Shown: one piece after another, positions 11,631 to 64,000 of the stretch
Numbering within the stretch: position 1 is the stretch's first letter
Layout of the letters: each line of letters begins with the position of its first letter
DNA from: Hemileia vastatrix
Lineage: Eukaryota > Basidiomycota > Pucciniomycetes > Pucciniales > Zaghouaniaceae
Assembly (NCBI GenBank): GCA_030280995.1
Contig: JASXTE010000001.1
Location: forward strand, 24,941,106-25,005,105
Direction: 5' to 3'
Length of the DNA stretch: 64,000 nt
Notes under the pieces: generated by a model
What the model was told of the DNA's origin: nothing
The model's database searches: none
The model's input: only the letters and a program-made list of their open reading frames with translations
Made by a program: the position numbers and the translations under genes

Positions 11631-13571
11631 TTATTTTGATTTAAATTTTTTCAAGAGATTTTTAAGATCAGAGATTTCATTTTCTGGAAGCCACTGGTCA
11701 TATTCACTTGATTTATTTTTAAATCTTAATTGATACTCAACTCCCTTTTCTTTTGTAAGGTGTCTCTTTTTAAGTATCTTTTCTATTTCTGCCTTTTCAA
11801 CTATTTCTTCAGGTTGCTGTTTATGCCTTCCTGATCTTCTTGGAAACAGAGCAGTATCATTAGAATGGTATGGTTTTATAAGAGAAATAGGAAATACTGG
11901 ATGTTTTCTATCATATGGTGCATATATAATAACCTCAACAGCATTATTACCAACCATCTTTTTAACTACAAATGTTCCAATGAATGGATCTTTCAATTTA
12001 ACATTACCATTTAAATTGAAATGTAGTGTTGAAATAAGGACTTCATAACCCTCTTTGAACATTTGTTCTTTATGGGCTTTATCCCATCTTTTCTTTTCAT
12101 ACTCAAACGCCTTATTTATAGATTCTTGAGCATGTTTTCTGCATAATTCTTGCATCTGAGGAAATGATTTAGTACCTGGATGGATATCCAATCTAGGTAA
12201 CTTATTAAGAGTTTTAGCAGGGGTATTAGGTACATAACCCAACCATAACTCAAATGGCTTCTTGCCAGTGACAGAATGGACTGTACTATTGTATACAAAT
12301 TCTAAACCTGGGATAAGGGTTACCCAATCATGCGTGAATTTGTCATTGTCTTTAAAATTAAGACCAAAAGCACAATATCTTCTTATCATATCTTCTAAGG
12401 TTTTTATCATTCTTTCTGCTAGCCCATAAGTTTGTGGATGGTGTGCTGTAGAAAGTTTTAATTGACACCCTGAAACATCCATAAGTGACGTCCAGAACTC
12501 AGAAGTAAATTTAGGATCTCTGTCAGAAACTATTGCTTTGGGGAAACCTGCTATATTTAACATTTGTGTCCACCATAAAAAAGCTAAGTCCTTTGCAGAA
12601 ACCTCTTTGTGGGTAGGAATAAATTTACACATCTTTTAAATCTATCTACAATTACCCAGCAGGAGTTATAACTCTTATGCCCTGCTATTGGCAAACCTGT
12701 TACAAAGTCCATGTTAATTATTTCCCATGGAGCTTTTGGTTGCTCAATTTGTTGTAATAAACCAGCTCTTTTGCCTGTTAATCTTTTAGATTTTTGGCAA
12801 GAATCACATGTTTCAACATATTTCTGAACATCCTCAGACATGTTAATCCACCAAGATGTGTTTTTTACTCTGGTTAATGTTTTATGGTAGTCAAAATGAC
12901 CTGCTAATATATCATCATGACATATACTTAACATTAACTCCTTCATTGAAGGGGGAATAACAATTACATTACTTAATTTTTTCCTGTAATATATAAAACC
13001 ATCCTCAATGGAAAATTTTCCTTTTTCTAATGCCTCTTTATACTTATTTGGTAATGTTTTTATTAAAACATTCATTGAAGCATTAGATAGATCATTTAAT
13101 ATTGTAGTGAGTTTACTCAAGTCAGGATCTGAATTATAATTATCAAGAATTGATTGCATAAATTCATCCTCAAGATCTACAATATAAATGCCATAAATGT
13201 TAATAATCTCTGACTCAGGAACATAAGCAGGATTATCATCATTATTAGGCAGAGGTACTCTAGATAACAGATCTACATTAGAGTGCAAGGTTCCTGCTCT
13301 ATGTTTAATAGTCATCCGTCCTCTGTATTCTTGTACAGCTAATTGCCATCTAAACATGTGTCTATTAGGAGTTTTCATGTTTAAGAGTGACTTAACTGCA
13401 CTACAGTCAGTGATTAACTCAAATTTTTGGTCTTCAAGGTAATAATGTAGCTTCTCAAGAGCCCATACTACTGCCAAAGATTCAAGTTGAGTAGCACCAT
13501 ATTTCAATTCACTACTTCTCAGAGTACGTGAAATATAGCAGATTACTACTTCTGACATTTTCCCTTCAATA
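11631..13571 (-). pseudogene. RNase H and integrase of family B gypsy Pol
   Basis: Continuation of Pol after the nested insertion. From 13560 leftwards it reads the RNase H part (ISRTLRSSELKYGATQLE, LITDCSAVKSLL, DLLSR), the zinc-binding integrase N-terminus (H-H from GHFDYHKT, then ETCDSCQKSKR), and the integrase core with NMDFVTGLP, IVSDRDPKF and AERMIKTLEDM (D, D, E). A chromodomain-like tail follows (YQLRFKNKSSEYDQWLPENEI). A one-base frame change lies near 12633 between VDRFKR and CKFIPTH. The integrase core is otherwise open for 333 codons. Confidence 0.9.
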
Positions 13572-14819
13572 GAGGGTGTCAGTTCTGGCAAATCTGCACT
13601 TAACTTAAGTGCGGATTTCAAACCAAATCAGCACTTAAATTTTGCAAAAAAGTCACTTATTTCAAAAAAGGGTGTCAGTTATGACCTCAAATCAGCAATT
13701 TTTTCCCGTTTTTTTTCACAACCACATTTTGGCCACAAAACATCCCTTCCTTTCTTACCCCATCCCTGTCACATGTGACACACTGACCTTCCTTGCTACC
13801 TACCCATCAATCCTTGGCACACACCCCTTCCTGACATTTTCAATATTTTGACCAGGCATGTTTACATTCTTTTTTACTTATTTCTTCTACTTCCTTATTT
13901 TTTTTCTATGGGTGTCAGTTCTGACCTCAAATCAGCACTTTTTTCGTGATTTTTTTTTCAAAACCACATGCTGGCCACATCATCCCTTTCTTTCCCATAC
14001 CATTTTGTACTCTCCAAATTTCCTCTTTGTGTACTTCATTCACTTGGGTTGGTATTTTGATTTGTTGCATATTCATTTTTTTTGGAATTTATGGTGAAAT
14101 TTTTTTTTTTTGGATGGCTCATCGGTTTTCTTTCACCAGCTCAACATGAAATCACATATTTTCTGAAATCGCATATTTTGTCAGTGATTTTTTTTTCATT
14201 CATCCCTCATATCCTTTTCCTATTCTCCTCCAACATCCCTCAAACAATTTGGTTTCATTCATTTTGTCATCTCATCTCTCCAGGTAAGTCACTTTATTCT
14301 TTTTTTTGATTTTTTGATTACTAATTATAATTTTTTTTGTTTTTTTCTGTTTATTTTATTTTTTTTATCTAAATTTTTTTTGTAAGTGGTTATTTTGGAT
14401 TTCAATGGTATAATTAACCTTTTTTTTCTCTCCCTCTTTACTTTTTTTTTTAGCTCCATCACCCTACTCTTCATCCCTCCTTGGCATGGTCATTATCCCC
14501 CCTTTCCCTTATTTCACTTTTTTTTGGCTCCATTTCATTGAAACACATACATTGCACATTCTTTATGCATTTCACTTACTCCATATTCAATTTCCCCACA
14601 ATTCCAACATCAATCTTTCTCACTCTATTTTTCCTACTTTTCAATCAAGGTAAGTTTCATCTCCTTTTTTTCATGCCTATATGATATCTCATTCCTTTTA
14701 TGAAAAGTTCATACTTAAATATATGTATGACTCTCATCTGGATAACAGTGAACTTATAAAACTCCTTTTGATCTCATCTTCATTACCACTTTTCAAGTTT
14801 TTGTAAAAGTTTGAAAATC

Positions 14820-15150
14820 AGACTCGGAATTAGGGTTAGTTTTATTCAAATCTAATGTTCTTTTTACTAAAGATTCTCCTGCAGGCTACCTTTCATTTCC
14901 CACAAACAGATTTGAATTTGATTCAGTGGTTGCTGAGATATTGACTGTTAAAGTTGAGCCTTTTTTTTCCCAATTTAAATTTTTATTTCATTTTTTTATG
15001 TAACAAATTAGGGTTAGGTTTATTTAAATCACATGTCCTTTAACTGAAGATTCTACTCAAGCATATAATTCATTTCCCTCAAACAGGTTTGAATTAGGTT
15101 CAGTGGTTGCTGAGATTTTGACCTTTGAAGTTGAGCCTTTTTTCCAAATT
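14820..15150 (+). repeat. imperfect tandem duplication of ~180 bp
   Basis: The block from about 14826 (TTAGGGTTAGTTTTATTCAAAT, then an AGATTCT segment, an ACAGATTTGAATT segment, GGTTGCTGAGATATTGAC, GTTGAGCC) recurs from about 15006 with the same landmarks in the same order. It precedes the oxygenase exon. The sequence carries no recognisable product. Confidence 0.6.
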
Positions 15151-15246
15151 TCACTTGTCTTACTTCACATTTTTATATTGCATATTTAGAGGATAAGGAT
15201 TCTGAAACTCTTATATGATTATTATCTAGGCATTTCAATTATATAG

Positions 15247-15875
15247 GCATATATTCGTTGCTCAAGAATATCACTAAAGCTCAAAAAGATGAAGATTTTT
15301 GCTTATGGGACACTCTACCTTCCTTTAACTCTTTTCTTGCTCTTTGACTCAAAAATCACTGTAATAAAGCATTTGAAAAAAATCATGAACTTGCAACCAA
15401 AGTTGGAATACCGAATTGGTGTGACTCCAAATAGGAAGATATCAGCCACAAATATCTTTTATTTTCTAATGTTATTATCACTCATTCTGGATTTCACAAT
15501 AAAATTCACACCGATACCAAGGACACCAATTTTCTTACTTTTGGTATATTCTCATATATCAAACCGATTACTGGCCAACCAATACCATCTCCAGCTAAAA
15601 TAAAATGACATGGTTTATATTTTCCAGACCACCGGTGCATCATTGATTTTGGTTTGGGAAATGGTATCATTGAAACTATTTGGAATTCTTCTAAGGATAA
15701 TCATCAAACGACCAAAGCTCCTCCTGGTTTGGAATCCTGTCAAGATTTAACACATTTTGGTTGCTCATTTAAAATCAGTCATAAGTTGATTCAAAGAATC
15801 AATAAGGTAATGAAAGAAAGTAAAGTTAATCGATTTAAAAAAACTTTATTTAGATCCAAAAAGTATGGGGATTAG
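15247..15875 (+). pseudogene. Tet-like 2OG-Fe(II) dioxygenase, C-terminal exon (copy 1)
   Basis: After an ATATAG acceptor the frame reads the catalytic domain of the fungal Tet-like (TET/JBP-related) oxygenases. It has FHNKIHTDTKDTNFLTFGIF with the HxD iron motif, a DFG...IETIWNSS strand, KDNHQTTKAPPGLE with the distal iron-binding His, and LTHFGCSFKISHKLIQRI. The family oxidises 5-methylpyrimidines or related bases in DNA, using Fe(II) and 2-oxoglutarate. Stops at 15345 (TGA), 15432 (TAG) and 15606 (TGA) disable this copy, though the iron ligands remain. The upstream exon present at 41243-41580 in copy 2 is absent here. Assignment to this fold rests on motif order only. Confidence 0.72.
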
Positions 15876-16380
15876 AGTTGTCATCAAAAATTTAATATTT
15901 TTTTGTAAATTTTTAATAAATATTTTTTATGTATCAATTTCCTCAACTAAAGTAATGGGCCCACGACCTTGTGTTGTATAAATGGTAATCATGATAACAT
16001 TTATTTGTTTCATGGGGTTCCTCTAGCCTATACCTGTGGAAAGTCCCAAACTTTTGTTTCTAGACTTGCTCTGCATTTTGGCTTGAGGGATTGTCATTAC
16101 TTTAAACTAGGGAAAGTGATATATATTAGATATTTATTTAATAATTTACGTAATTATATTAAATTTAGATGACTTCCACCACTTACTTCAATAAAATGCA
16201 GGGGGGGGTATTGCCAAATTTTCAAATCTGACATGTGAAATTGATGACTTAGAAAAATTTTGGTGATATCCACCCCTTGCTTCAATAAAATTCAGGGGAG
16301 AGTATTGCCAATTTTTTAAAACAGATATAGAATTTTTTTGACTTGTAAATATTTTGGTGAAAAATGTTTGACGAGAATGT
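15876..16380 (+). repeat. conserved 3' flank of the oxygenase gene with minisatellite
   Basis: Bases 15950-16175 match, almost base for base, the reverse complements of 40270-40470 and 63530-63735. They contain a 67-codon frame (SQTFVSRLALHFGLRD), but identity is at nucleotide level, so coding is not shown. From 16190 two units of a ~105-bp repeat follow (GGGGG, TATTGCCAA, TTTTGGTGATATCCACCCC, TTGCTTCAATAAAAT). The array ends where transposase sequence starts. Confidence 0.65.
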
Positions 16381-17011
16381 GAAAGTAATTGTTTCCACCT
16401 TGAGCAGGTTTCTGGCTCAAAGGAATAGAAGTACCATCAACAAAACCAATACATCCTGGGAAGCCCTCTGCTTGCATAACCTGAGATGATTCAAGTCGCT
16501 CTTCTTTTGTTGGCCAGGTGAGAAGTTGAGATTACAAGGAGTTGATGGCGGTGATACATTGTTTGGTATAAGTGTTAACTGAACCATACCCTAAATCAAA
16601 GACATTTTCTAAATGTTTCAAAGCGGCTCCATTACCATTTGAACCCAAATGACATAGTGTGATGGCCAATTGAATTGAGGGATGTTGTTGTTCTTTTTTA
16701 GAATTATTGTGAAATATGGGATGATCCTGAATAAGCTCAAGCAATTTAAGGAAACATTCCTGAGAAGTCCTGAACAGCTGTCTAAAACTGGGTGTAGATA
16801 GTTTAAGAAGTGTTTGGATGGTGTACTTGGGGGTATGAAGTACTTGAGGCTTTCTGGGAAGAAGGTAATGTTTTGTGGCCATTTTTGATAAAAAGACAAA
16901 ATCTTCTTCTAGATCAGAATCAGAATCGGAATCAGAGTCCAAGAGCAGTTCAAGAGCCATGAAAGTCATTGCTTTATGTAATTTATCACGATTTGAAAGT
17001 GAGGAAGGCAT
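16380..17011 (-). pseudogene. Harbinger-like DDE transposase, N-terminal half (copy 1)
   Basis: Minus-strand frame with an acidic Asp/Ser run (DSDSDSDSDLEED), LSTPSFRQLFRTSQECFLKLLELI, DHPIFHNNS, LCHLGSNGNGAALKHLENVFDLGYGSV (helix-turn-helix region) and, after a stop at 16532, EGFPGCIGFVDGTSIPLSQKP, which carries the first catalytic Asp. The protein stops matching at NNYF, where the oxygenase 3' repeat begins. Homologous to 43197-44459. Probable start MPSSLSNRD at 17011; a downstream Met at 16969 is also possible. Confidence 0.8.
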
Positions 17012-17282
17012 AACTCTTATATGATATGATATGAAGATGTAAGTGATGTACAATGTTTTGAGTTATGAAGTTTTATGCTGCAGAGTTCTGCGTATGAATA
17101 GGATGATGCTGACAAATCAGTGAAATGGGACTTGATGGTGAAATCAGCACTTTTGGTTTAGAAAGTGCAGATTTGAGTGAAATAAGTGACTTATTTCATT
17201 TTGAAATCCACCAGTATTGGGGCTAGTGTGTTTTGGAAATCCGCACTTATTTAAGTGCGGATTCGCCAGAACTGACACCCCC

Positions 17283-29161: not shown

Positions 29162-29935
29162 GGGGGTATTATCAAAGTTGACCAATCCACAATTAAATTA
29201 ATTGTGGATAAAAATCATTCTACCCCAATTATCTTTTGCAATTATTTTTGCTAATAATTGGGTTAGCGCACTCCCATCCTGTCTATTCATTTCTGTTCAA
29301 AACCCCTCCCCATCTCATTAGTTTTTTTTCTTCCCCTTTTCATCTTCAAATATCTCAACATTCCTCATTGTCATAGGGTCTTCTCAAAGGCAGGGCCCCC
29401 CAATGGTTCATCAAATTTCATTACTCCCTCTTTCCCCTGTTCAGCTGAGAAATCAAAGACGGTTCAACTAAAAAAAAGATGATCATCTCATACTTATCAA
29501 CTGGCTGAAAATAAAAACCAATTATGATTCTTGTTTTTGGTACTGAGAATGCCGCTAAAGTAGGACAGCCCCATTCATCAAAAGTCAATGAATATCTTTT
29601 AATGGACAACAAATTACAAAATAAGACAATAGGAAGGATTGATCTTTTGCCTAAACAGATGTCTGAATGCTTCAAGCACTATCAAGCCCAATACAAGACA
29701 GCTAAGACTCTTTCATCTTCCACTGGTTTTGGTATCAATGACATTGATATCAGTAAGGGAATCAAATCTATAGATGATAAGCTTGATTCTTTATTTCCTT
29801 ACTATTAAGAGATGAATTGTATATTTGGAGAGCAACCTGATGTTGATCCTGAAAATATGTTGGATGGAGAAGATGCTATCTTCAAACATGATGTTGTAAG
29901 AAATCATTTAACTAAATTTCTTCTAACTTCAATTT
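29162..29935 (+). mobile_element. truncated left end of Harbinger-like element (copy 0)
   Basis: Starts GGGGGTATTATCAA, then a palindrome CCACAATTAAATTAATTGTGG (29187-29207), then the ACCCCAATTATCTT and TAATAATTGGGTTA blocks shared with 37902 and 61226. The first exon of the Myb-like gene follows (29345-29900; KVNEYLLMDNKLQNKT, RIDLLPKQMSECFKHY, SSTGFGINDIDISKGI), with stops and frame breaks. Similarity stops near 29900, so only the left tenth of the element remains. Confidence 0.75.
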
Positions 29936-31529: not shown

Positions 31530-33124
31530 AAATGCTATGATTTTTTCTTTTTATACTTTTTTGGTAGAGTAGGAAGATTAGATATCTCTTTCCCAGGTAT
31601 CCAAGAATCATATTCAGATGATTTATTCTTGAATCTCAATAAGTATTCTTTACCCTTTTTAGCAGTGACTATTCTGTCATTTAGAATTTTTTCAATTTCT
31701 GCTGTTTCAGTGATCTCATTTGGGGTTTTCTTTGGTCTTCCCCTCCTTTTTGGAAATTAATCACTATTGGATATATAAGGTTTCAGAAGAGATATTGGAA
31801 GAACAGGATGTTTTCTGTCATATGGAGAATACAGAATAACCTCAACTGAAGTTTCTCCAATCATTCTTCTGACAACAAATGGACCAACAAATGGATCTTT
31901 CAATTTGTTATTACCTTGTAAATTGAAGTGGACTGTAGAAGTCAACACTTCATCACCCTTTTTAAAAGTGTATTCTCTATGGGATTTGTCCCATCTCTTC
32001 TTCTCATATTCAAATGATTTTTCGATACATTGCTGAGCATCATTTCTGCACAGTTGTTGCATTTGAAGAAAAGATTTTACACCAGGATGTATATCCAATT
32101 TAGGTATTTTGTTATTGAGAATTTGGGCAGGAGTGTTTGGAACATATCCAAGCCAGAGCTCAAAAGGCTTTCTTTGAGTAACAGAATGAACAGTGCTGTT
32201 ATAAGCAAATTCCAACCCAGGAAGTAAAGTAACCCAATCATGAGTGAATCTATCATTATCTTTATACTCAAGGCCAAAGGCACAATACCTTCTTATCATG
32301 TCCTCTAAAGTCTGAATCATTCTTTCAGCTAAGCCATCAGTCTGTGGATGATGGGCAGTAGAAAGTTTCAGATCACAACCACAAACATCCATCAGAGACA
32401 TCCGAAATTCAGAAGTAAATTTAGGGTCTCTGTCAGAGATTATGGCTTTAGGAAAACCAGCAGTATTAAACATATGAGACCACCATAAGAAAGCTAATTC
32501 TTTAGTGGAAACATCCTTGTGGGTAGGAATAAATTTACACATTTTAGTGAATCTGTCCACAATAACCCAACAAGAGTTATAACTATCGTTTCCAGCAATA
32601 GGTAATCCTGATACAAAATCCATGTTTATTACCTGCCATGGTGCATCAGGAGGTTCAATATGTTGCATTAATCCAGCTTTTTTACCAGTAAATCTTTTTG
32701 ATTTTTGGCAAGAATCACAAGATTCAACATATAATTTTGTGTCTTCAGACATATTAACCCACCAAGCAGTGTTCTTAATTCTGAACATTGTTTTTTCAAC
32801 ATCAAAATGTTCAGCTAATATGTCATCATGACAAATTTTCAAGATGATTTCTCTCAGAGAAGGAGGAATAACAATAACATTACTCAACTTCCTCCTATAA
32901 TATATATATCCTTCATCAATTGAATATTTACCTTTTTCCAAAGCCTTCTGGTACTTTGGTGGAAGGGTTTTAATTAATGCTTGTATTGAAGCATTCTTTG
33001 GATCATTTAATATGGTGCATAACTTTTTCAAGTCAGTGTCCTTATCATATGCATCCAGAATAAGCTGTAATAGCTCTTCCTCCATATCAACCACATATAT
33101 CCCATGAATATGAATAACTTCATC
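31530..33124 (-). pseudogene. integrase with chromodomain-like tail, family A copy 3
   Basis: Open for 445 codons (31757-33094). Zinc-binding H-H-C-C (EHFDVEKTMF and ESCDSCQKSKR), integrase core with NMDFVSGLP, IISDRDPKF and AERMIQTLEDM (D, D, E), then DPFVGPFVVRRM. After a stop at ~31757 the frame continues into YLLRFKNKSSEYDSWIPG, a chromodomain-like tail that could guide insertion to chromatin marks. A stop near 33122 separates it from RNase H in the same frame. Confidence 0.9.
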
Positions 33125-34696
33125 CTAAGGATCATAAGCAGGATTAGAGTCATCATTTAGTAAATGTAACCTTGATAACATATCCACATTTGAGTGAACA
33201 ATACCAGCCCTATGAATTATTGTCATTCTTCCTCTGTATTCTTGAACAGCCAACTGCCATCTGAAAATATGTCTTTTAGGTGTTTTCAAGTTTAAAAGGG
33301 ATTTAACTGCACTGCAGTCAGTGACAAGTTCAAATTTCTGGTCATCTAGGTAATAATGTAGCTTCTCTTGAGCCCACACTACAGCTAAACATTCCAATTG
33401 AGTAGCACCATATTTCAATTCACTATTTCTCAAGGTTCTTGAAATATAACAAATTACTACTTCTGAAACTTTATCATTTATCACTTGTTTTTAATGGAGG
33501 GCAGCACCAAGACCAATGAAACTGGCATCAGTGTACAAAACAAATGTTTGATTAAAGTCAGGTAAAGCAAGAATTGGTGCTGACATCAAACAGTGTTTCA
33601 TAGTGTCAAAGGCTCTTTGTCTTTCACTATTCCAGACAAAAGCAACATCCTTTCTATGTAATTGAGTAAAGGGTAAAGCTATGACTTGGTAATTTTTAAT
33701 ATACTGTCTATAGTATCCACACATTCCCAAAAAACTCTGGAGCTCTCTAACTGTAGTAGGAGCCTTCACCTGTTGTATGGCTGCCACTTTGTTTTGGTCA
33801 ACACATATCTGTAAGCCTGAAACAACATGACCAAGAACTTTTAAAGAATGGAAACCAAATTTACATTTCTTCAAAGCAAGTTTCATGTTTATTTCATCCA
33901 TTTTCTGGAACACTTTACACAGGTGGTTAAGATGATCCTCAAATGTTTTTGAGAATATAATGATATCATCAATATAAACCATCAGCCATCCTTCAATTAT
34001 CTCTTGATGGAATGTGTTATCCATGACTTTTTGGAAAACTGAAGGGGAATTTTTAGGGCCAAAAGGCATCCTAATATACTTATAAATACCCATATGAGTA
34101 GCAATCATCAGAAAGTTCTGAGAATTTTTCTCAACAGGTACCTGGTGATATCCCTTGTTACCATCCAAACAGCTGATATATTTAGCACCCTGTAAAGTAG
34201 CATGTATAGAGCTAATTCTAGGTAAAGGGTAGATATCATCAACAGTATAAGTATTTAGTGCTCTATAATCACCACATAACCTGGCTTTATCTTTCTCATA
34301 AGAAATTAGGACAGGTGAGATAACACAATATTTAGGTGTTTCAACTACCTTTTCAATAATATTCATTTTCAAAAGGGTAGAGATATTTTCTTCAATATCT
34401 TTTTTCTTTGTGGGGGAAGCAGGATAAGGCTTCTTTTTTAAACTGGGTGGTATATCAGTTAATGGACAAGACAATGAAAGTTTCATTTCTTCTTTAACTA
34501 ATCCCAGTTCATATGACCCATGAGCAAAGGCCATAGGAAAAGACTTTATCAAGTTAATGATGGAATCTTTATCCTCACCAGAAAGTTGTTCTCCAAAAGA
34601 GGCATTGTCAATTTCAGACATAAGGGCGTGCATCTCTTTTGTAGATCTTCCTTTATATTGAACCACAGAATTACATGTGTTCAATTCTGGTTTCAA
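33125..34696 (-). pseudogene. reverse transcriptase and RNase H, family A copy 3
   Basis: Reverse transcriptase (33491-34696) has DIPPSLKKKPYPASP, CGDYRALNTYTVDDIYPLPR, CLDGNKGYHQVPVEKNSQ, MPFGPKNSPSVFQKVMDNTF and VYIDDIIIFSK, then FVLYTDASFIGLGAALH. A TAA replaces the Gln codon of the ALHQKQ motif (near 33485). RNase H continues in the same frame (33125-33484; LVTDCSAVKSLLN, VDMLSRL). Both pieces are otherwise intact. Confidence 0.92.
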
Positions 34697-35420
34697 TAAT
34701 TTTTAGGGGAGGAAATCTTCAATTTTCTCTTCCCATTCATCCCCATTGTGAAACATTGGTTGGAAGGATCCAATTTTATGCCATACTTGGTTAAAATATC
34801 ATTCCCTACAATAAACCAATTGCTCAAGTTATCATTTTTCATGACAACAAAATCACAAATAGCTCTTACAAAACCATGGTTATATTTAAAAAACACTGTG
34901 GCTTTGTATTTACCGATGGGGGACAAAACAGAGCCATACCCTCTCCAATTTTCATAAATGATAGGCATCAGTTTTGATTTATAGTCTTGATCCACTGAAG
35001 CAAGTGCTCTTTCAGATACTACACTTCCTCCAGCTCCAGAATCCAGAACAACTTCAATGCTGGTTCTATTGATCAAGACTGGTGCTTTGAGAGGGGAAAT
35101 AAAAATTGAGCTATCCTCAATTCTCTTTATGATCTCAGCATCTTCAACTGTAGATAAATCATTATTATCAATATCAATAGTATTTAAATAATGGATATCC
35201 TCTTCCAGCATCAAGATTTCTTGTTGAGATTCATATGAAATATTGCTGGCACAATCACTTGAAGTATCATTCAGTGCTACTGTGTCATCAGCATGCTCCT
35301 CTGTTTGTTCTACAAGATTTATCTTGTCACAAACATGGCCCTTCTACCAAGGTTTGTTGCATACTTTTTAGGTGCAACAGGGGCAGAAGGCTTTCCAACC
35401 TTTTCCAGACAACTAAATAA
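34693..35420 (-). pseudogene. protease and zinc-knuckle remnant, family A copy 3
   Basis: Retropepsin domain with VVLDSGAGGSVVSERAL, ENWRGYGSVLSPIGKYKA and FIVGNDILTKYGIKLDP. It ends in NGKRKLKISSPKNY and a stop caused by a one-base shift relative to the reverse transcriptase frame. Upstream an acidic linker and part of a knuckle (about 35250-35400) remain before the gag deletion. Confidence 0.85.
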
Positions 35421-37901: not shown

Positions 37902-38267
37902 GGGGGTATCAATGTTCAGGGATCCGCAATTAAATTAATTGCGGAAAATAATCTGCATACCCCAATTATCTTCCACAATAATTTTTTTTGCTAATAATTG
38001 GGTTATTAGACACTTTACGTGTCAATGTTCACCTCTTATCCGACATTTTTTTACTCAATTTTTCATAACCACATCTTGGACAACTTTCTGTCATAACCAC
38101 ATCTTGACCTACTTTCTGCCATAACCACATCTTGGACTACTCTCTAGATATGGCTTCTACCTTGATGCGCACTCACATTCTCATCCCATCCTGTCCATTC
38201 TATCCGCTCAGAACCCCTCACCATCTCATCTGCTTGTTTCTGCTCCTTTTCATCTTTATATTTTAAC

Positions 38268-39672
38268 ATGCCTTGTCTTTCTAGATCTTCTCAAAGGCAA
38301 CCATCACACAGTTGTTCTTCAAATCCTAATACTCCCTCTTTCCCCTGCTCAGCTGAGAAATCTAAGACCGTTCAATTAAAAAAATATGATCAACTCATTC
38401 TTATCAACTAGCTGAAAACCAAATATAACTATGATTATTGTTTTGGTACTGAGTATGCGACTAAAGTAGGACGGCCCCCAGCATCAAAAGTTAATGGCTA
38501 TCTTCTAATGGCAAATAAATTATGGAATAAGACCAAGGGAAGAATTGATCTTTTTCTTAAACAGATGTCTGAACGCTTCAAGCATTACCAAGCCAAATAC
38601 AAGAAGGCAAAGGCTCTTTCATCTTCCACTGGTTTTGGGGTTACTGACATTGATATAACTAAGGGCATCAAATCCATAGACAATAAACTTGAATCTTTAT
38701 GTCCTTACTTTAAAGAGAAGGATGCAATTTTTGGAGAGAGAGCTGATGTTAATCCTGTAAACATGTTGGATGGAGAAGATCCTATCTCCAAACATGATGT
38801 TAAAGCAAATATTTTCCCATCCTCCTCCTCCACTCAAGCCTCCCCTCATTTGAATGAGACCAATCTAGATAGCTTTTCTGTATATCCTATTGATGATTTA
38901 ACCCAACCAAATATAACTCAGGTCTGATTCTTTTTTATTTTATCTTTACAATTCTATTTTTTTATTTACTTATCTTTTTCTTATTTCTTAAAATGCTGAC
39001 AAACAAACCCAGGATCCTCAATCAACTGAGTCTGAAGGTAGTGACAATGATGAGGAGGAAAATATGACCTTGAAAAAGAAGCTTAGGGCTTCAAGTAGTC
39101 TAAATTTCCACTCCCAAAGAAGAAAAAAAAGTGATACTTCATCACAAACCCATTTTTTGTCTATGGAACAATTTTTAGAGAAAAGTGATGCTGGTAAGTG
39201 ATACCATACCTCTTATTGCTTTACTCCACTTTTCTTCTACTTTATATTAATTTTTATTATCACTCTAGAACAAGTGGAAATCGCTAAAGAGACTCTAAGC
39301 TTTGAAAGGAAGAAATACAAGCTCTCTTTAAGGAGGAATGATAGGCTACAAGATTTGGAAGAGAGGAAGTACAAGCTCTCTTTACGGAAGGATGATCAGG
39401 CCTAAGATTTGGAGGAGAGGAAGTATGAGCTCTCTTTATGGAAGGATGATTGGGCCCAAGATTTGGAGGAGAAGAAGTTTGAGTTAACTCTAAGTATTAA
39501 AAAATCAAAAAAAGAGGAGAAAACACTTGAAAATCAAAAACTTTTAGAGCAGATGAAATATAAGTTTGATCATGAAGAAAATTCCAAAAAGAAAGATTTC
39601 TTGATAGAATGTGTTAAAGCTAATAAATCTGTTGAGGAAACTGAACGTTTAAAGAAATTGTTGGATTACTAG
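38268..39672 (+). pseudogene. Myb/SANT-like DNA-binding protein with coiled coil (copy 2)
   Basis: Exon 1 (38268-38921) starts MPCLSRSSQRQ and has the helical domain LKTKYNYDYCFGTEYATKV, RPPASKVNGYLLMANKL, RIDLFLKQMSERFKHYQ and SSTGFGVTDIDITKGI, then IFGERADVNPVNMLDGEDP. Exon 2 is ~38992-39193 and exon 3 39269-39672, which encodes a highly charged coiled coil built from 18-residue repeats (KYELSL..DD..QDLEE). Damage: TAG at 38409 replacing the Trp of INWLKT, loss of the AG acceptor of intron 1 (AAAAT against AAAAG at 62300), and TAA near 39403. In Harbinger elements such a protein binds the ends and brings in the transposase; that role is inferred. Confidence 0.75.
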
Positions 39673-39829
39673 TTTGTTTTATTTCTCTTACACTTCAACT
39701 GTTCATATTTATTTGTGCATAAAATTTACAATAATTTCTTGTATTTCATTACTCTATTCATCATTACTTGAATTTTTGTATTTTAATGTTAAATATTCTT
39801 TTTTAAATAAAATTTTCATGTCTCCTTTG

Positions 39830-40265
39830 AAAATTTGACAATCCCCCACCCCTGGATTTTTTTGAAGTAAGGGGTGGGTATCACCAAAATTCTTTCATGT
39901 CATGAATCTTGAAAGTCTTATGTGAAACTTTAGCTTTACTACCCCCTGCATTTTACTGGTATCCCCAAAATTCTTACAAGTCAAGAATTTCACAAGTCTT
40001 ATAAGAAATTTTGGCAATACCCCCCCTGGATTTTATTGAAGTAAGGGACAGGTATCCCCAAAATTTTTTCACCAAAATATATACAAGTCAAAAATTTTAC
40101 ATGTTACATTTGAAAAGTTGGCAATACCCCCCCTACATTTTATTGAAGCAAGGGGTGGGTATCACCAAAATTTTTACAAGTCGTCAATTTTGAATGTCAG
40201 ATTTGAAAATTTGGCAATACCCCCCCCCCTGCATTTTATTGTAGTAAGGGGTTGAAGTCATCTAA
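39830..40265 (+). repeat. ~105-bp minisatellite between convergent Myb-like and oxygenase genes
   Basis: About four units with the landmarks CCCCC, ATTTTATTGAAGTAAGGGG, GGGTATCACCAAAATT, CAAGTC and GAAAATTTGGCAATAC. The same array is at 63110-63525 and, reversed and shorter, at 16190-16380. It lies where the two convergent transcripts would end. Confidence 0.8.
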
Positions 40266-40554
40266 ATTTAATATAATTACATAAATTATTAAATAAATAT
40301 CTAATATATATCAATTTCCCTAGTTTAAAGTAATGACAATTCCTCAAGCCAAAATGCAGATCAAATCTAGAAACAAAAGTTTAGGACTTTCCACAGGTAT
40401 AGGCTAGAGGAACCCCATGAAACAAATAAATGTTATCATGATTACCTGTTATACAACCAAAGGTTGTTGGCCCATTAATTTACTTGAGGAAATTGATATA
40501 TAAAAACTATTTATTAAAAATTTATGAAAAAATATAAAATTTTTGATGACAACT

Positions 40555-41885
40555 CTAATACCCATACTTTTTGGATCTAGATAAAGTTTTTTTAAATTGA
40601 TTAACTTTACCTTCTTTCTTTACCTTGTTGATTCTTTGAATCAACTTATGACTGATTTGAAATGAGAAACCGAAATGTGTGAAATATTGACAGTATTCCA
40701 AACCAGGAGGAGCTTTGTCCGTTTGATTATTATACTGAGAAGAATTCCAAATAGTTTCGATGATACAATTTCCCAAACCAAAATCAATGATGCACCGGTG
40801 GTCTGGAAAATATAAACCATGTCCTTTGATTTTAGCTGGAGATGGTATTGGTTGGCCAGTTATTGGATTGATATATGAGAATATACCAAAAGTAAGAAAA
40901 TTGGCATCATTCCTATCGATATGAATCCTATTGTGGAATCCAGAATGAGTGATAATAACATTAGAAAAAAAAATATATTTGTGGCTGATATATTCCCATT
41001 CAGAGTCACACCAATATGGTATTCCAACTTTGGTTGTAAGATCATGATTTTTTTCAAATGCTTTATTACAGAGCTTTTTGAGTCAAAGAGCAAGAAAAGA
41101 GTTAAAGGAAGGTAGAGTGTCCCATAAGCAAAAATCTTCATCTTTTTGAGCTTTGGTGATATTCTTGAGCAATGAATATATGCCTATATAATTGAAATAA
41201 GTGAAATGTTATTAAGAATGGAACAAAAATTATTAGACATACCAAGAGAATATCCTTTAACAAAACCAGGTCTCCAACCAAATCCAATCATGATACCACC
41301 CAATAAATTTGTATTCCTTATAGGTAACCAAACCGAAGCCATTTGATAAAGAGTTATGATAAGATCAGATAGTTGATTAAAAGATTCATCTTTTACACCA
41401 TTGAATGAATGAACTTCCAAAATGAATTGAGCCTTATAAGTATTACTGATAACTGCAACAGCTCAATCATCTCCAAATTCAGTTAGATATTTAATATCTT
41501 CTGGTAATTTTTTTGGATATTGATTTTTTTTATCTACTTTAGTTTTATGAAAAAAAATGTTTGGGATATGATGAAAAAAACGTTTGCAGAGAATTTTTTT
41601 TTTCAGATATCTTTTCTTCTGATGAGACTGATTATCTTTATTTTTTTTTGATGATTTAGAAGATGAATTTGTTTTTCAGATATCTTTTATTCTGAGGAGA
41701 CTGATTATCATTAAATTTTTTTGATGATTTAGAAGATGATTGTATTGAAGTTGATTTTGAAGAAGATGATAGAGATGATAAAGATGAAGATGATAAATAG
41801 GATAAAGATGAAGATGATAGAGAAGTAAGGGGTGAATCTTAAGAAGAAGACGTTTTTTTGATCTGAAAAAAAATTTGAATGTCAA
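40555..41885 (-). pseudogene. Tet-like 2OG-Fe(II) dioxygenase (copy 2)
   Basis: Exon 1 (to 41243) has a Ser-rich, low-complexity N-terminus, then KKLPEDIKYLTEFGDD, FILEVHSFNGVKDESFNQLS and GIMIGFGWRPGF. A 59-bp intron (GTATGT...ATATAG, 41184-41242) leads to exon 2 with ITHSGFHNRIHIDRNDANFL (HxD), TFGIFSYINPITGQPIPSP, GHGLYFPDHRCIIDFGLGN, IETIWNSS and THFGFSFQISHKLIQRI. Motif order is that of fungal Tet-like oxygenases, which act on methylated DNA bases. Here the distal iron ligand is lost (NNQTDKAPP against NHQTTKAPP), and TGA codons lie near 41465 and in FLAL. Leader exons may extend upstream towards 43.0 kb, where a CACCAGGTAAGT donor is shared with copy 1. Confidence 0.75.
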
Positions 41886-42374
41886 AAAAAAAAATCAACA
41901 AACTTAAAAAAAAAAAAACTCACCTAAAAATATCTTTTAAATTAAAATTTAAAGCAAAATCCTGTTTAAAAAAATTAAAAAAAAATTTTTTAAAACAAAA
42001 AAAAAAAAAAAAAAAAATTCTGTAAAAATTATTTCAAAAAAAAAATTCAAATGAAAACCTGAAGTTTGGTTATAAAAAACCTTCACAGAAAATCCTGACA
42101 AAAAAAAATGAAAATTAAAATTAAAAAAATAAAAAAATAAAAAAAAATCAGTCAAAGAAAAATCAAAACAAAATTTTTTTTTTTAAAAAAAATTTAAATT
42201 CAGTAAAATTATTTGGAAGAAAAATTAAAAATTAAAATCTAAACCTTTTTTATTTTTTAATTAACAGGGAAAGTCCTTAACAGAATGTAAAAGATTTTTT
42301 TTTCCTAAATTTCTGCCAAAAAAAAAAAATTACAAAAAACAAATTTTTAGTATGTTTTTTAGAAAGTAGGTAAC

Positions 42375-42848
42375 CCCTCTTTAGCTCCCATAAAAGTCCC
42401 CTTCCCCCCCTTTATTTCTCTGAAATCCCCTATAAAATCCCTCCCTCCTTTCCTCAAAACCCCCCTCAAATCCCCTCCTTGCCTGCCTCAAAATCCCCCT
42501 GAAACCCCCTCCTTATTTGCCTCAAAACCCTTCCAAACCCCCCCTTTACCCCTCTTTATATGTCCTGAACCCCCCCTTGTTCTTAACAAACAATTGATAG
42601 CAATTGTTTGCTAAGTAATTGAATTGTTAGTGTAGTGATTTGATTACTTAGCGAATGATCATTTGTTAAGAAGGAGGGGGGGGGAGGTAGAGGCGGATTA
42701 AGGGGTGTGGAAGGGGGAAAGGGGGTTATGAGGTACCTAAAGAGGGTAAAATAAGGGGGACTTGAGGAAGGTAAATAGAGGGGAGAAGGAGTGGCTTGAG
42801 GCAGGTAAAGAGAGAGGAAAAGGGGTGAAATGAGGCAGCTAAAGAGGG
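42375..42848 (+). repeat. foldback element, pyrimidine/purine arms
   Basis: Left arm starts CCCTCTTTAGCTCCC and is C/T-rich with repeated CCTC..AAACCCCC units; right arm ends GGCAGCTAAAGAGGG and is G/A-rich. The centre pairs CTTAACAAA (42582) with TTTGTTAAG (42662) and GCTAAGTAA with TTACTTAGC. No ORF. It sits between oxygenase and transposase genes of the Harbinger-like element and is absent from the chimeric copy. Confidence 0.7.
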
Positions 42849-43196
42849 TGAAGGAGAGAGAAAAAAAAGAAAAAAAAAGAGAAAAAATAGAAAAAAAAAC
42901 AAAATTAGTCTAACCTTGAAAATAAAAAAAAGAACTTACAAAAAAACAAAAAAAACAACAAAAAAAACAAAAAAAAGAAAAATAAAAAAAATTCATCATT
43001 AGCAAATAAAAAACAAGAAAAAAGATAAAAAAAGACTTACCTGGTGAGATGAGTTGAGAAGATAAAAGTAACCAAAATATTTGAGTGATGTTTGAGGAGA
43101 GGATGAAAAGGATATGAGTGATGAATGAAAACCAAAATACTAAACCAAGTGAATAAAGTACACAAAGAGGACATTTGGAGAGTACAAAACAATAAT

Positions 43197-44459
43197 TTAA
43201 AAGGGTGGTGAAGAGAAATGTTGGAGAGTAATAGGCATAATGACAGAGCATATGCCAGTTGAATGAATGTTTTGTGATTCAAGGGAGGGGATAGCCAGTG
43301 CTGTTTCAGGATCCTCTTCTTCATAAAGATCATTCCACTCATCCTTTAAATCAGCTAGGATATTGTGGAGTATAATGCAAGTCATGATCCAATTATTTGC
43401 AGTTTTGATCTCCATTTTTTTTTGAAATTGGATTCTGAGCTCCTGAAGACTAGAAAATTGTCCCTTTAAAATACCAATAGCATGTTTAATTCATACTCTT
43501 GATTGGGTAAAGTGATAATTAAAGGCATTTTTGGGGTCACTTTCTAAACTTGCACCACGGAAAGCAGGTATAATGTACTTTCCACTTGCATATGCTGAGT
43601 TTGCAAGGAGGTACTGAGATTTGTCAAAGTATGAGTCGGGGGTTTGAGAAATCCTCATTCTTTGGAAGACAGAAGAATCATGACATGAGCCAGGGCAGCC
43701 ACTATGAAAAGCAATAAATTTTTTATTGACATCACATACAAGTTGAATGGCAATAGAGTATCTAGAAAGAAGGTAAAAATTTAGTTTATGAAGGATGAGA
43801 AATTGGAGAAGATTTTGAAGAAACCTTTTTTTGCAATCAAAATAATGGTTGCCATCATGAGCAGGCTTTTGAATCAAAGGTATAGTTGTGCCATCAACAA
43901 ATACTACACAGCCAGGGAAACCTTCAGCTTGCATTACTTGAGAGGATTCAAGTCACTGTTCTGGAGTTGGCCAAGCAAGTGTTTGAGACTTGAGGAAAAG
44001 GATAGCAATCATACAGCTCTTGGTGTATAATATCATGGTGCCATATCCTATGTTAAAGAGATTATCCAAATGTCTTACAGCAGCACCGTTTCCATTTGAG
44101 CCAAAGAGACATAGTGCAACAGCAAGTTGGATGGCAGGATTATGCTGTTTGTTATGGGAATTGTTATGAAAGATAGGATGATCAGAGATGAGTTGATAAA
44201 GTTTGAAGAAAGAATTGGGAGAAGTTCTAAAAAGTTGGGTGAAGTTTAAATGAGGAATGTTGAGAATGGAGGCCAGATCATATTGGGGATCATGATAAAG
44301 ATTTGGCCCCCTGTTGATGATGTAATGCTTTTTGGAAAGAAAACACACATAAGCTAAATCATCTTCCAAATCAGAGTCAGATTTATAGTAAAGAACTAAA
44401 AGAAAACTAATAGCATTCATTGTTGAGTGAAGTAGCTTCCTAGTAGAGAGGTGTTTCAT
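43197..44459 (-). pseudogene. Harbinger-like DDE transposase (copy 2)
   Basis: Start MKHLSTRKLL at 44459. It has an acidic stretch KSDSDLEDD, NFTQLFRTSPNSFFKLYQLI, LCLFGSNGNGAAVRHLDNLF, EGFPGCVVFVDGTTIPLIQKP (first Asp), a 63-bp intron within CKKR/YSIAIQLVCD, CPGSCHDSSVF, LLANSAYASGKYIIPAF and IKHAIGILKGQF, ending near a conserved NWIMTCIILHN helix. The triad is degraded: the second Asp is Asn (AAC) and the Glu is Lys (AAA). TGA stops occur at about 43952 (copy 1 has CGA) and 43490. Inactive copy of a PIF/Harbinger DDE nuclease. Confidence 0.85.
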
Positions 44460-44837
44460 TGTTGCCGGTGGAAGGCTTATGTGATGAGGGAAGTGGGAAT
44501 TCGCCGCCAAATGTGCAGTTGGGGTGTGTAGATAGGAAAAAAAACTTAAGTGTTTTCCACCCAAATTAAGTAGCATAGAGTGAGGAAAGACTTAAGAATG
44601 GCATCAGCAATTATGAGTCATGTGACTTTCTTGTAAATCCATCATGGATGTGATGAGTTTGGGATCAGGAATTAGGAATGGAAATTGGGGTATAAGAAGC
44701 GGGATAATGCATTATTGTGGATTCCTTATCCACTAGCCCTGGTGCTAGTGGATAAGAATCTTCTGCAATTAATAATGTCAGATCCTGGGAAAAAAATTCC
44801 TGATCCCTAATTGCGTATCCCTGAATATTGATACCCC

Positions 44838-44910
44838 ATATTATGTCCTCTTTTAATTTCAATAAATTTGTATATATATTTAATGGGCTCCTGGAACAGC
44901 CTGTCTGACA
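44838..44910 (-). repeat. remnant LTR, right end
   Basis: Continues the LTR-like sequence broken at 37901 and ends GAACAGCCTGTCTGACA, the gypsy LTR terminus. It abuts a MITE fragment. Confidence 0.5.
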
Positions 44911-56439: not shown

Positions 56440-57300
56440 ATTGATATATATATGATGATGATGATTATGATTTTAATTTTTTAATTTATTGATATATATG
56501 ATGATGATGGGAATGTTTTAATTTATTGATATGATGATGGTAATGTTTTAATTTATTGATATGATGATGGTAATGTTTTAATTTATTGATATGATGATGG
56601 TAATGTTTTTAAATTATTGATAAGATGATGATGATGGTTATGTTTATATTGGTTGATTGATATGATGATGATGGTAATGTTTTAAATTAGTGCTGTTTTA
56701 ATTTATTGATATATATCACCACACAAATGTGGGGGGGGCCAACTTGCTAGCAAGTCTGCAACCTTGGACCCAAACTCACCACAGATTGAGCACAAATTGA
56801 GCTATTAATAAATGAACCATACAGTCAGGGATGAACACCACCCAGCAGAACAGTTTTAGGTGAGTGTTCAAGTAGAGTTCAGTCTGAATTCCATCTGAGT
56901 TCCATCTGAGTTCCATCTGAGTTCAGGTTGAGGACTTGCTAGAAAGTCCGTCCCCTATATTGCATAGTGTATGATGATGATGATGATGGGAATGTTTTAA
57001 TTTATTGATATGATGATGGTAATGCTTTAAGTTATTGATATGATGATGATGATGGTTATATTTTTATTGGTTGATTGTTATGATGATGATGGTAATGTTT
57101 TAAATTAGTTCTGTTTTAACTTATTGATATATATGATGATGATGATAATGAGAATGTTTTAATTTATTGATATGATGATGGTAATGATTTGATTTATAGA
57201 TATGAAGAAGGTAATGATTTAATTTATTAATATTATGATGATGATGGTAATGCTTTAATTTATTGATTGATATGTAAATGCTATGATTATGATGATGGTA
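56440..57300 (+). repeat. ~30-bp minisatellite (TTTATTGATATGATGATGG type)
   Basis: Many units of about 30 bp, AATTTATTGATATGATGATG followed by GTAATGTTTT, with variation in the number of GAT triplets. The array is split by a MITE (56717-56969). Its minus strand encodes His/Asn-rich peptide, which is a by-product of the repeat. Confidence 0.9.
56717..56969 (-). mobile_element. CACTA-like MITE, 253 bp, reverse orientation
   Basis: Same family as 3977-4237 but inverted: starts CACCACACAAATGTGGGG and ends CCTATATTGCATAGTG. It is flanked by TAT on both sides and inserted within the minisatellite, whose units continue on either side. An internal triplicated TTCCATCTGAG motif replaces a duplication in other copies. 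Confidence 0.88.
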
Positions 57301-61225: not shown

Positions 61226-61565
61226 GGGGGTATCAATGTTGACCGATCCTCAATTAAATTAATTGCAGAAAATAACCTGCATACCCCAATTATCTTCCGC
61301 AATTATTTTTGCTAATAATTGGGTTATTAGACACTTTACGTGTCAATGTTCACCTCTTATCCGACATTTTTTACTCAATTTTCCATAACCACATCTTGGA
61401 CAACTTTCTGGATATCCCAGCCTTCTACCTTGCTGCGCACTTCCATTCTCATCCCATCCTGTTCATTCTATCCGCTCAGAATTTCTCCCCATTTCATCTA
61501 TTTGATTCTTCTCCTTTTCATCTCGCTATCTCATCTGCTTGTTTCTGCTCCTTTTCATCTTCATT

Positions 61566-62978
61566 TATAATAACATTCCTTGTCATCCTAGATCTTCTCA
61601 AAGGCAGCCATTACCCAGTTGTTCTTCAATTCCCACTACTTCCTCTTTCCCCCGCTCAGCTGAGAAATCAAAGACCGTTCAATTAAAAAAAGATGAACAT
61701 CTCATTCTTATCAACTGGCTGAAAACCAAATCTAACTGTGATTCTTGTTTTGGTACTGAGTATGCCACTAAAGTATGACGGCCCCCTGCATCAAAAGTTA
61801 ATGGCTATCTTCTAATGGCAAATGAATTACGCAATAAGACCAAGGGAAGGATTGATCTTTTGCCTAAACAGATGTCTGAATGCTTCAAGCATTACCGAGC
61901 AAAATACAAGAAGGCAAAGGCTCTTTCATCTTCCACTGGTTTTGGGATTACCAACAATGATATAACTAAGGGCATAAAATCCATAGACGATAAACTTGAT
62001 TCTTTATGTCCTTACTTTAAAGAGATGGATGCAATTTTTGGAGAGTGAGCTGATGTTAATCCTGTAAACATGTTGGATGGAGAAGATCCTATCTCCAAAC
62101 ATGATGTCGAAGCAAATCTTTTCCCATCCTCTTCCTCCACTCAAGCCTCCCCTCATTTGAATGAGACATATCTAAATAGCTTTTCTGTAGATCCTATAGG
62201 TGATTTAACCCAACCAAATCTAACTCAGGTCTGTTTCTTTTTTCTTTTATCTTATCAATTCTATTTTTTATTTACTTATCTTTTTCTTATTTCTTAAAAG
62301 GCTGATGAACAAACCCAGGATCCTCAATCAACTGAGTCTGAAGCTAGTGACAATGATGAGGAGGAAAATGCTACGTTGAACAAAAAGAGAAGGGCTTCAA
62401 CTAGTCTAAATTTCCTCTCCCAAAGAAGACAAAAAAGTGATACTTCATCACAAACACATTTTTCTTCTATGGAAAAGTTTTTAGAGAAACGAGATGCTGG
62501 TAAGTGATATCATACCTCTTATTACTTTACTCTGCTTTTCTTCTACTTTATGTTAATTTTTATTCTCACTCTAGAACAAGTGGAAATTTCTAAAGAGACT
62601 CTGAGCTTTGAAAATAAGAAATACGAGCTCTCTTTAAGGAGGGATGACAGAGTACAAGATTTGGAAGAGAGGAAGTATGAGCTCTCCTTACAGAAGGATG
62701 ATCGGATCCAAGATTTGGAGGAGAAGAAGTTTGAGCTCTCTTTACAGAAGGATGGTAGGGCCCAAGATTTGGAGGAGAAGAAGTTTGAGTTAACTCTTAG
62801 TATTGAAAAATCCAAAAATAAGGAAAAAACACTCGAGCATCAAAACTTAATGGAACAGATGAAGTATAAGCATGATCTCCAAGAAAGTTCTAAAAAGAAA
62901 GATTTCTTGATCAAATGCATTAAAGCAAACAAATCTGTTGAAGAAATAGAACGTTTAATGAAATTTTTTGTTGACTAG
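61566..62978 (+). pseudogene. Myb/SANT-like DNA-binding protein with coiled coil (copy 3)
   Basis: Exon 1 (~61566-62228): KTVQLKKDEHLILINWLKTK with the Trp kept, RPPASKVNGYLLMANELRNK, GRIDLLPKQMSECFKHYRAK, SSTGFGITNNDITKGIKSID and LCPYFKEMDAIFGE. Intron 62229-62300, exon 2 62301-62499 (acidic ASDNDEEEN, then basic), intron 62500-62574, exon 3 62575-62978 with three clear 18-residue coiled-coil repeats. Damage: the ATG of copy 2 is ATT here, TGA at 61776 (GGA in copy 2) and TGA at 62046. Splice sites are intact, so this copy gives the best gene model. Confidence 0.78.
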
Positions 62979-63109
62979 TTTCTTTTATTTCTTTCACACT
63001 TCATGTGTTCATATTTATTTGTACATAAATTTTACAATTATTTTCTGTATTTCTTGAAATATCGTATTTTCATGTTAAATATTCTTTTTTTAAATAAAAT
63101 TTTCAAGTC

Positions 63110-63525
63110 TCCTTTGAAAATTTGACAATCCCCCACCCCTGGATTTTTTTGAAGTAAGGGGTGGGTATCACAAAAATTCTTTCATGTCATGAATCTTGAA
63201 AGTTTTATATGAAAATTTGGCTTTACTACCCCCTGCATTTTACTGGTATCCCAAAAATTCTTACATGTCAAGAATTTCACAAGTCTTATAAGAAATTTTG
63301 GCACAACCCCCCATGGATTTTATTGAAGTAAGGGACGGGTATCACAAAAATATTTACAAGTCAAAAAAATTCTATATCTGTTTAAAAAAATTGGCAATAC
63401 TCTCCCCTGCATTTTATTGAAGCAAGGGGTGGGTATCACCAAAATTTTTCTAAGTCATCAATTTCACATGTCAGATTTGAAAATTTGGCAATACCCCCCC
63501 CTTCATTTTATTGAAGTAAGGGGTG
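63110..63525 (+). repeat. ~105-bp minisatellite (copy 3 of the element)
   Basis: Four units corresponding to those at 39830-40265, again between the 3' ends of the Myb-like and oxygenase genes. Confidence 0.8.
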
Positions 63526-63826
63526 GAAGTCATCTAAATTTAATATAATTACATAAATTATTAAATAAATATCTAATATATATCAATTTCCCTAGTTTAA
63601 AGTAATGACAATCCCTCAAGCCAAAATGCAGACCAAGTCGAGAAACAAAAGTTTGGGACTTTCCACAGGTATAGGCAAGAGGAACCCCATGAAACAAATA
63701 AATGTTATCATGATTACCTGTTATACAACACAAGGTCGATGGCTCATCACATTACTTGAGAAAATTGATATATAAAAAATATTTATTAAAAATTTATGAA
63801 AAAATATAAAATTTTTGATGACAACT

Positions 63827-64000
63827 CTAATCCCCATACTTTTTGGATCTAGATAAAGTTTTTTTAAATTGAATAACTTTACCTTCTTTCTTTACCTTAT
63901 TGATTCTTTGTATCAACTTATTACTGATTTGAAATGAGCAACCGAAATGAGTGAAATCTTGACAGGATTCCAAACCAGGAGGAGCTTTGGTCGTTTGATG
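63827..64000 (-). pseudogene. Tet-like 2OG-Fe(II) dioxygenase, C-terminal end (copy 3, partial)
   Basis: Minus strand from the window edge: HQTTKAPPGLESCQDFTHFG, CSFQIS, KLIQRINKVKKEGKV, LSRSKKYGD and stop at 63827. The distal iron-binding His (HQTT) is intact, unlike copy 2, and no stop interrupts the visible 57 codons. The rest of the gene, including the HxD motif, lies beyond the window, so whether this copy is intact is unknown. Confidence 0.72.

What the first reader, a model, noticed from the sequence alone, without database searches (positions are those of the whole stretch)
37902..44837. A Harbinger-like transposon that carries a Tet-like DNA dioxygenase between its two usual genes
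Seen: within one pair of inverted ends lie a Myb/SANT-like coiled-coil gene, a gene with fungal Tet-like oxygenase motifs (HxD, DFG..IETIW, NxQTxKAPPG, THFG.SFQIS), and a DDE transposase. Copy 3 (61226-64000) repeats the first two in the same order and copy 1 (13572-17282) pairs oxygenase with transposase. Known: Harbinger elements use a transposase plus a Myb-like partner; fungal TET/JBP-type genes have been linked mainly to another transposon class (KDZ). Inference: the oxygenase is element cargo that may oxidise methylated bases at the element's own DNA, to escape silencing or aid transposition.
Basis: partly seen in the sequence, partly recalled or inferred. Interest (0 to 1): 0.88.

Follow-up and report, generated by a model that had tools for sequence, protein, structure and literature searches.

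The report
Fungal jumping gene carrying Tet-like enzyme
The window holds a decayed fungal cut-and-paste transposon that carries a Tet-like gene, probably able to oxidise methylated DNA; this kind of element was described in 2025, but here the gene also moves between transposon families, and one chimera that received it has multiplied.

Summary
Observation confirmed. 37902-44838 is a TIR element flanked by TA, with a Myb-like gene, a Tet-like 2OG-Fe(II) oxygenase (PF20515, E 2e-20) and a DDE_Tnp_4 transposase, all broken by stops. The kind is published: TET+ PHISTA, Harbinger-related rust transposons (Kojima 2025, PMC12730594). The host is an unnamed 748 Mb genome; 19 of 28 transposase relatives are named Austropuccinia psidii, a rust. 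Two end sequences have 7,195 and 6,714 exact sites; 15 of 20 chosen stop-free oxygenase loci show all three genes.

Two points I did not find in print: (1) the oxygenase behaves as an exchangeable cassette: transposons about 90% alike carry oxygenases about 68% alike, and gene trees conflict; (2) window copy 1 is a chimera, family-B ends around an inverted family-A oxygenase gene, and has multiplied: each junction recurs full length at 97-99% in 39 other places (lists capped at 40).

C-to-T differences are about 12 times commoner at CpG than at other cytosines, fitting methylation of the elements. That the enzyme oxidises 5mC to escape silencing is inferred, untested.

The parts
37902..44838 (.). 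Whole element (window copy 2), family A, about 6.94 kb, TA on both sides
37902..37932 (+). Left terminal inverted repeat
44808..44838 (-). Right terminal inverted repeat
38260..39672 (+). Third gene: Myb/SANT-like segment then coiled coil; in-frame stops; limits approximate
   Evidence: relatives match Myb_DNA-bind_4 weakly
40558..41462 (-). Tet-like 2OG-Fe(II) oxygenase, coding pieces; core 40558-41082 holds HxD and distal His; one in-frame stop just upstream of the core
   Evidence: PF20515 E 2e-20
42980..43189 (-). Probable promoter and 5' untranslated exon of the oxygenase gene, ending in a GT donor (inferred from conservation)
   Evidence: 83.1% of 166 aligned sites alike in copy 1; matching stretch beside the transposase end in 12 of 12 sampled copies
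43200..44591 (-). DDE_Tnp_4 transposase with one probable intron; two in-frame stops
   Evidence: PF13359 E 9.3e-13
13572..17282 (.). Window copy 1: chimera with family-B ends, TA on both sides, inserted in a Gypsy pol gene
14008..16360 (+). Family-A oxygenase gene inside copy 1; three in-frame stops in the core
   Evidence: 95.1% collinear with L026 over 2356 columns; stops
16379..17062 (-). N-terminal half of a family-B transposase in copy 1
   Evidence: 96% to TP_B
61226..64000 (.). Window copy 3, family A, cut by the window end: third gene and the 3' part of the oxygenase
29162..29895 (+). Window copy 4: truncated left end with part of the third gene

Best explanation
Shown: a dead copy of a TET+ PHISTA-type DNA transposon (Harbinger-like DDE_Tnp_4 transposase, TA target duplication, Myb-like third protein, Tet-like oxygenase between them) in a rust-like genome with thousands of related ends and stop-free relatives; the oxygenase gene is exchanged between element families, and one chimera that received it has multiplied. 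Inferred: the transposase and Myb-like protein move the element; the oxygenase oxidises 5-methylcytosine at CpG on element DNA and so weakens silencing or aids transposition. A diffusible enzyme could serve other elements too, so the gene can be swapped, or ride in a chimera that lacks half the transposase.
For: PF20515 and DDE_Tnp_4 matches. HxD and distal His invariant in 11 of 11 proteins. All three genes in 15 of 20 chosen stop-free loci, and between both TIRs in 10 of 20. TA on both sides in 10 of 12 elements. Oxygenase present in 10 of 12 and 8 of 11 copies not chosen by it. Median dN/dS of the oxygenase between families 0.09-0.26. C-to-T differences 95 of 702 cells at CpG against 107 of 9,361 elsewhere. 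CG methylation of young transposons is reported for the wheat stem rust fungus (PMC8444563, abstract and one section read). Exchange and chimera.
Against: No activity is shown. The CpG decay means the oxygenase does not fully protect its carriers; CpG observed/expected is 0.19-0.40 in ten full-length elements, but 0.41 in another retroelement stretch. Cytosine methyltransferase search: 8 matches, all on four contigs that appear in none of the element lists, so the host's own enzyme was not located. dS between families is saturated and rows were chosen for few stops. Within families dN/dS is 0.34-1.35 and between window copies 0.52-1.54. Three of 11 end pairs form a young subfamily without oxygenase in the slot. 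Both structure models were unusable.
Confidence: 0.6

Rival explanations
1. The oxygenase is passive cargo: once captured it is copied and swapped by recombination or repair between repeats, with no present benefit to the element.
For: The chimera multiplied although its window copy has three stops in the oxygenase; a young end-A subfamily without oxygenase in the slot also multiplied; within-family dN/dS 0.34-1.35.
Against: Median dN/dS 0.09-0.26 between families and invariant Fe ligands; retained in most copies of two samples not chosen by it.
Confidence: 0.2
2. The oxygenase acts on another target (thymine, adenine, RNA, or a further modification of 5mC as in CMD1) and marks or protects element DNA or its ends rather than undoing methylation.
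For: PF20515 covers uncharacterised Tet-like proteins; PMC12730594 also leaves another activity open.
Against: CpG-specific decay points to methylated CpG as an available substrate.
Confidence: 0.15
3. No exchange took place: the oxygenase simply evolves faster in one lineage (A'), and the blocks of copy 1 are alike through selection.
For: The groups of the AU test were named after seeing the oxygenase identities; oxygenase dS is saturated.
Against: A against A': dS 0.24 (transposase, 4 pairs), 0.38 (third gene, 10 pairs), 2.3 (oxygenase, 16 pairs). In copy 1 non-coding parts are as alike as coding ones, the edges are sharp, and the junctions recur elsewhere.
Confidence: 0.05

Closest known systems
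TET+ PHISTA families (Harbinger in Repbase terms), Kojima 2025, PMC12730594 (parts 1-5 of 7 and legends read)
   Same: DDE transposase of Harbinger type, TA target duplication, a third protein, a Tet-like gene inside the TIRs, rust host (probable here).
   Different: Another genome, probably a host not surveyed there; third protein shows weak Myb/SANT matches where the paper says none has that domain; exchange of the oxygenase within these families and a multiplied chimera, which I did not see in the text read.
Canonical PIF/Harbinger transposons
   Same: DDE_Tnp_4-type transposase; Myb-like partner (weakly supported here).
   Different: Canonical elements make 3-bp duplications (PMC12730594); here TA. 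They carry no oxygenase (recalled).
KDZ elements (Kyakuja, Dileera, Zisupton) with TET/JBP genes
   Same: Carry a TET/JBP-type gene.
   Different: Other transposase and 7-8 bp duplications (PMC12730594); the transposase here matched DDE_Tnp_4, DDE_Tnp_1 and Plant_tran.
CcTET of Coprinopsis cinerea (AG type)
   Same: Tet-like fungal oxygenase, close to transposon-borne genes (PMC12730594).
   Different: Another type; activity on 5mC known there, not here. A profile search found no TET structure among PDB sequences.

Membership tests
TET+ PHISTA | Harbinger-type DDE transposase | tested here: met
   DDE_Tnp_4 E 9.3e-13 in the window and 3.2e-26 in L021
TET+ PHISTA | TA target duplication | tested here: met
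   TA on both sides in 10 of 12 elements, window copies 1 and 2 included; empty site of copy 1 in a Gypsy paralogue
TET+ PHISTA | TET/JBP-type gene inside the TIRs | tested here: met
   PF20515; 10 of 20 loci with both TIRs hold all three genes between them
TET+ PHISTA | Third protein without a Myb/SANT domain (as stated in PMC12730594) | tested here: inconclusive
   A third protein is present; 10 of 11 relatives match Myb_DNA-bind_4 below its cut-off; 0 PDB matches
TET+ PHISTA | Transposase falls in the PHISTA branch of the published tree | not tested
TET+ PHISTA | PU-type oxygenase with HxD and distal His | tested here: inconclusive
   Fe ligands invariant in 11 of 11; assignment to the PU type itself not tested
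TET+ PHISTA | Host in Pucciniales | tested here: inconclusive
   19 of 28 transposase relatives are named Austropuccinia psidii; the host has no name here
Canonical PIF/Harbinger | 3-bp target duplication | tested here: not met
   TA only
Canonical PIF/Harbinger | Myb/SANT partner protein | tested here: inconclusive
KDZ | KDZ transposase | tested here: not met
   Pfam matches are DDE_Tnp_4, DDE_Tnp_1 and Plant_tran
TET/JBP dioxygenase | Oxidation of 5-methylcytosine | not testable with these tools
   needs an assay

The most novel reading that the evidence does not exclude
The oxygenase gene is a mobile anti-silencing module in its own right: it is swapped between transposon families as a complete transcription unit, and a chimera that lost half the transposase but holds an oxygenase cassette has spread with another family's transposase, so that the oxygenase acts as a shared good for many elements.
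Probability: 0.25. Interest if true: 0.78.

Novelty: new variant of a known kind. Interest (0 to 1): 0.5.

Why it matters
If the enzyme works as inferred, these transposons carry their own means of erasing the host's silencing mark. One genome then offers a natural experiment: closely related backbones with different oxygenases, a young subfamily with none in the slot, and a chimera that multiplied with an oxygenase cassette but half a transposase. Comparing methylation and oxidised methylcytosine over these classes would make the open question of what transposon-borne TET genes do directly testable.

Tried and rejected
Structure models of a third-protein relative and an oxygenase relative had pLDDT 41.7 and 33.3; no fold search was made with them. 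PDB sequence searches gave 2, 1 and 0 weak or no matches, none useful. Paper searches gave nothing, only PMC12730594, or longer lists seen as titles and abstract starts. An older oxygenase transfer between families A and B was considered and dropped, since dS is saturated. A genome search with the family-A oxygenase DNA did not complete. Whether other chimera copies share a stop of copy 1 was not tested: that pattern search did not complete. No fetched locus spans a copy-1 junction with full length.
Full report
WHAT IS THERE. The stretch 37902-44838 is bounded by an inverted repeat of about 31 bp with TA on both sides. Inside lie, in order, a plus-strand gene with a Myb-like segment and a coiled coil, a minus-strand oxygenase gene and a minus-strand transposase gene. 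The oxygenase core matches PF20515 at E 2e-20 and the transposase DDE_Tnp_4 at E 9.3e-13. All three have in-frame stops. A probable promoter and untranslated exon of the oxygenase lies just beyond the transposase end (about 43189-42980): it is conserved in copy 1 (138 of 166 aligned sites), and a matching stretch follows the transposase in 12 of 12 sampled copies. The exon reading is inferred.

WHERE IT COMES FROM. Of 28 proteins related to the transposase, 19 are named Austropuccinia psidii, a rust; the top-ranked of these is 39% identical over 79% of the query, and two unnamed ones rank higher at 47 and 48%. The host is therefore probably a rust; the species is open. The oxygenase piece had 2 relatives and the third protein 1.

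HOW COMMON IT IS. Exact searches of two end sequences gave 7,195 (family A) and 6,714 (family B) sites, against 0 for reversed controls. The PF20515 search had 10,849 loose candidates; only the best 150 were scored, and all 150 passed the cut-off. From the rows without stops I picked 20 (I did not count those rows): 17 show a transposase match, 18 the third gene, and 15 of 20 all three within 9.5 kb (the output of 65 was cut, so the counts rest on 69; in two of the 15 the transposase match covers only about 30%). In 10 of 20 both TIRs were found, with all three genes. These loci were chosen for open frames and so overstate youth.

DOES THE OXYGENASE BELONG. Two samples were taken without regard to it. 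The 12 rows next after the window's own in the transposase search (40 scored of 4,101 candidates) were fetched: 10 of 12 have the family-A oxygenase in the same place; L033 lost its coding part by a deletion that keeps both sides; L035 is cut off and followed by Gypsy sequence. Among the first 100 family-A end sites listed on one contig there are 20 adjacent facing pairs under 20 kb; I read the oxygenase slot of the 11 that are 5.5-7.4 kb long: 8 of 11 have it, and the other 3 are 97.4-99.5% alike, a young subfamily. In these 11 only the slot was read.

SELECTION. Median dN/dS between families is 0.09-0.26 for the oxygenase, 0.10-0.30 for the transposase and 0.15-0.20 for the third gene where computable; oxygenase dS is 1.2-2.6, that is, saturated; 2 of 22, 5 of 17 and 5 of 20 rows were left out for frame or stops. 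Within families it is 0.34-1.35, and between window copies 0.52-1.54. HxD and the distal His are invariant in 11 of 11 proteins.

METHYLATION SIGNATURE. C-to-T differences from the majority letter occur in 48 of 296 cells at TCG, 23 of 163 at ACG, 10 of 92 at GCG and 14 of 151 at CCG (95 of 702 together), against 107 of 9,361 in all other contexts, the highest being GCA with 12 of 419. Cells are not independent events. This is what methylation-driven or RIP-like decay would leave. CpG observed/expected is 0.19-0.40 in ten full-length elements and 0.17 in window copy 2, 0.05-0.10 in three Gypsy genes but 0.41 in another retroelement stretch of the window, so no protective effect can be claimed. 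A search for cytosine methyltransferases gave 8 matches on contigs C74, C228, C350 and C561, which appear in none of the element lists; genes split by introns can be missed. CG methylation of young transposons is reported in the wheat stem rust fungus (PMC8444563: abstract and one section read).

CASSETTE EXCHANGE. L018, L025, L027 and L028 have a third gene 86-89% like family A and, where the transposase is held (L025, L028), one 90% like it, but an oxygenase only 67-73% like that of family A over 51-81% of the query. Trees of transposase and third gene unite them with family A at 100/100; the oxygenase tree rejects that clade (AU p 5.8e-5; the groups were named after seeing the identities). 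Median dS agrees: 0.24 and 0.38 against 2.3. Along the element, identity to L021 is about 90% in the transposase, 74-78% over the stretch of the third gene and 67-75% in patches across the oxygenase gene.

THE CHIMERA. Copy 1 (13572-17282) has family-B ends and the first half of a family-B transposase (96%), but its middle, 14008-16360, is a family-A oxygenase gene, 95.1% collinear with L026 and inverted relative to the B layout. It lies in a Gypsy pol gene; the joined flanks align across the site with a paralogous Gypsy stretch (76.6% over 521 columns). The right junction is found full length in 40 of 40 scored places, 39 of them elsewhere at 99%; the left one likewise, 39 elsewhere at 97% (1,272 and 2,681 loose candidates, which include one-sided matches). 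Two places appear in both lists, C194:22181765-22184486 and C34:2400953-2403674, each spanning 2,722 bases against 2,721 in the window. Of 34 adjacent facing family-B end pairs under 20 kb among the first 100 sites listed, 8 are 3.71-3.77 kb long; copy 1 is 3,711. That these are the chimera is inferred from length. So the chimera is a multiplied, non-autonomous family carrying an oxygenase cassette. In the window its oxygenase core has three in-frame stops, one of them shared with copy 2; whether other copies are open is unknown. Origin by interrupted gap repair with a switch of template is my inference.

COMPARISON WITH WHAT IS KNOWN. Kojima 2025 (PMC12730594; outline, parts 1-5 of 7, legends and found passages seen; no supplements) describes 15 TET+ Harbinger-type families with TA duplications and a third protein in five Puccinia species and A. 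psidii, names the lineage PHISTA, reports transfer of the gene between transposon superfamilies, and proposes escape from silencing. The finding is a member of this published kind as far as tested. The main text does not hold the words Hemileia, Uromyces or Phakopsora. I did not find exchange within these families or a multiplied oxygenase-bearing chimera in the text read or in eight paper searches, which cover open-licence papers only.

VERDICT. Observation right; interpretation largely right but published in kind; the exchange of the oxygenase gene and the multiplied chimera are the new parts. Function is inferred.

Noticed in passing
L044, L048, L051 (contig C2): Young subfamily (97.4-99.5% alike in the stretch read) with family-A ends about 6.0-6.2 kb apart and no oxygenase in the slot; tandem-repeat rich. 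The rest of these elements was not read.
   Followed up: partly
contig C2, 2714543 and 3865348: Facing family-A end pairs only 439-453 bp apart, of MITE size.
   Followed up: no
contigs C74, C228, C350, C561: The only cytosine methyltransferase (PF00145) matches of the genome search; contig sizes and nature not seen, possibly contaminants or split genes.
   Followed up: no
window 56468-57276: Family of eight 108-nt direct-repeat copies, mostly spaced by 30 nt.
   Followed up: no
window 39849-40250 and 63136-63501: Minisatellite-like copies of about 98 nt between the third gene and the oxygenase gene, partly kept beside the oxygenase in copy 1.
   Followed up: partly
window 11631-13621, 17494-21212, 31757-35214: Gypsy-type retrotransposon genes with very low CpG observed/expected, 0.05-0.10.
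   Followed up: partly
copies 1 and 2, oxygenase core: Copies 1 and 2 share an in-frame stop at the same oxygenase position: inherited or recurrent is open.
   Followed up: partly
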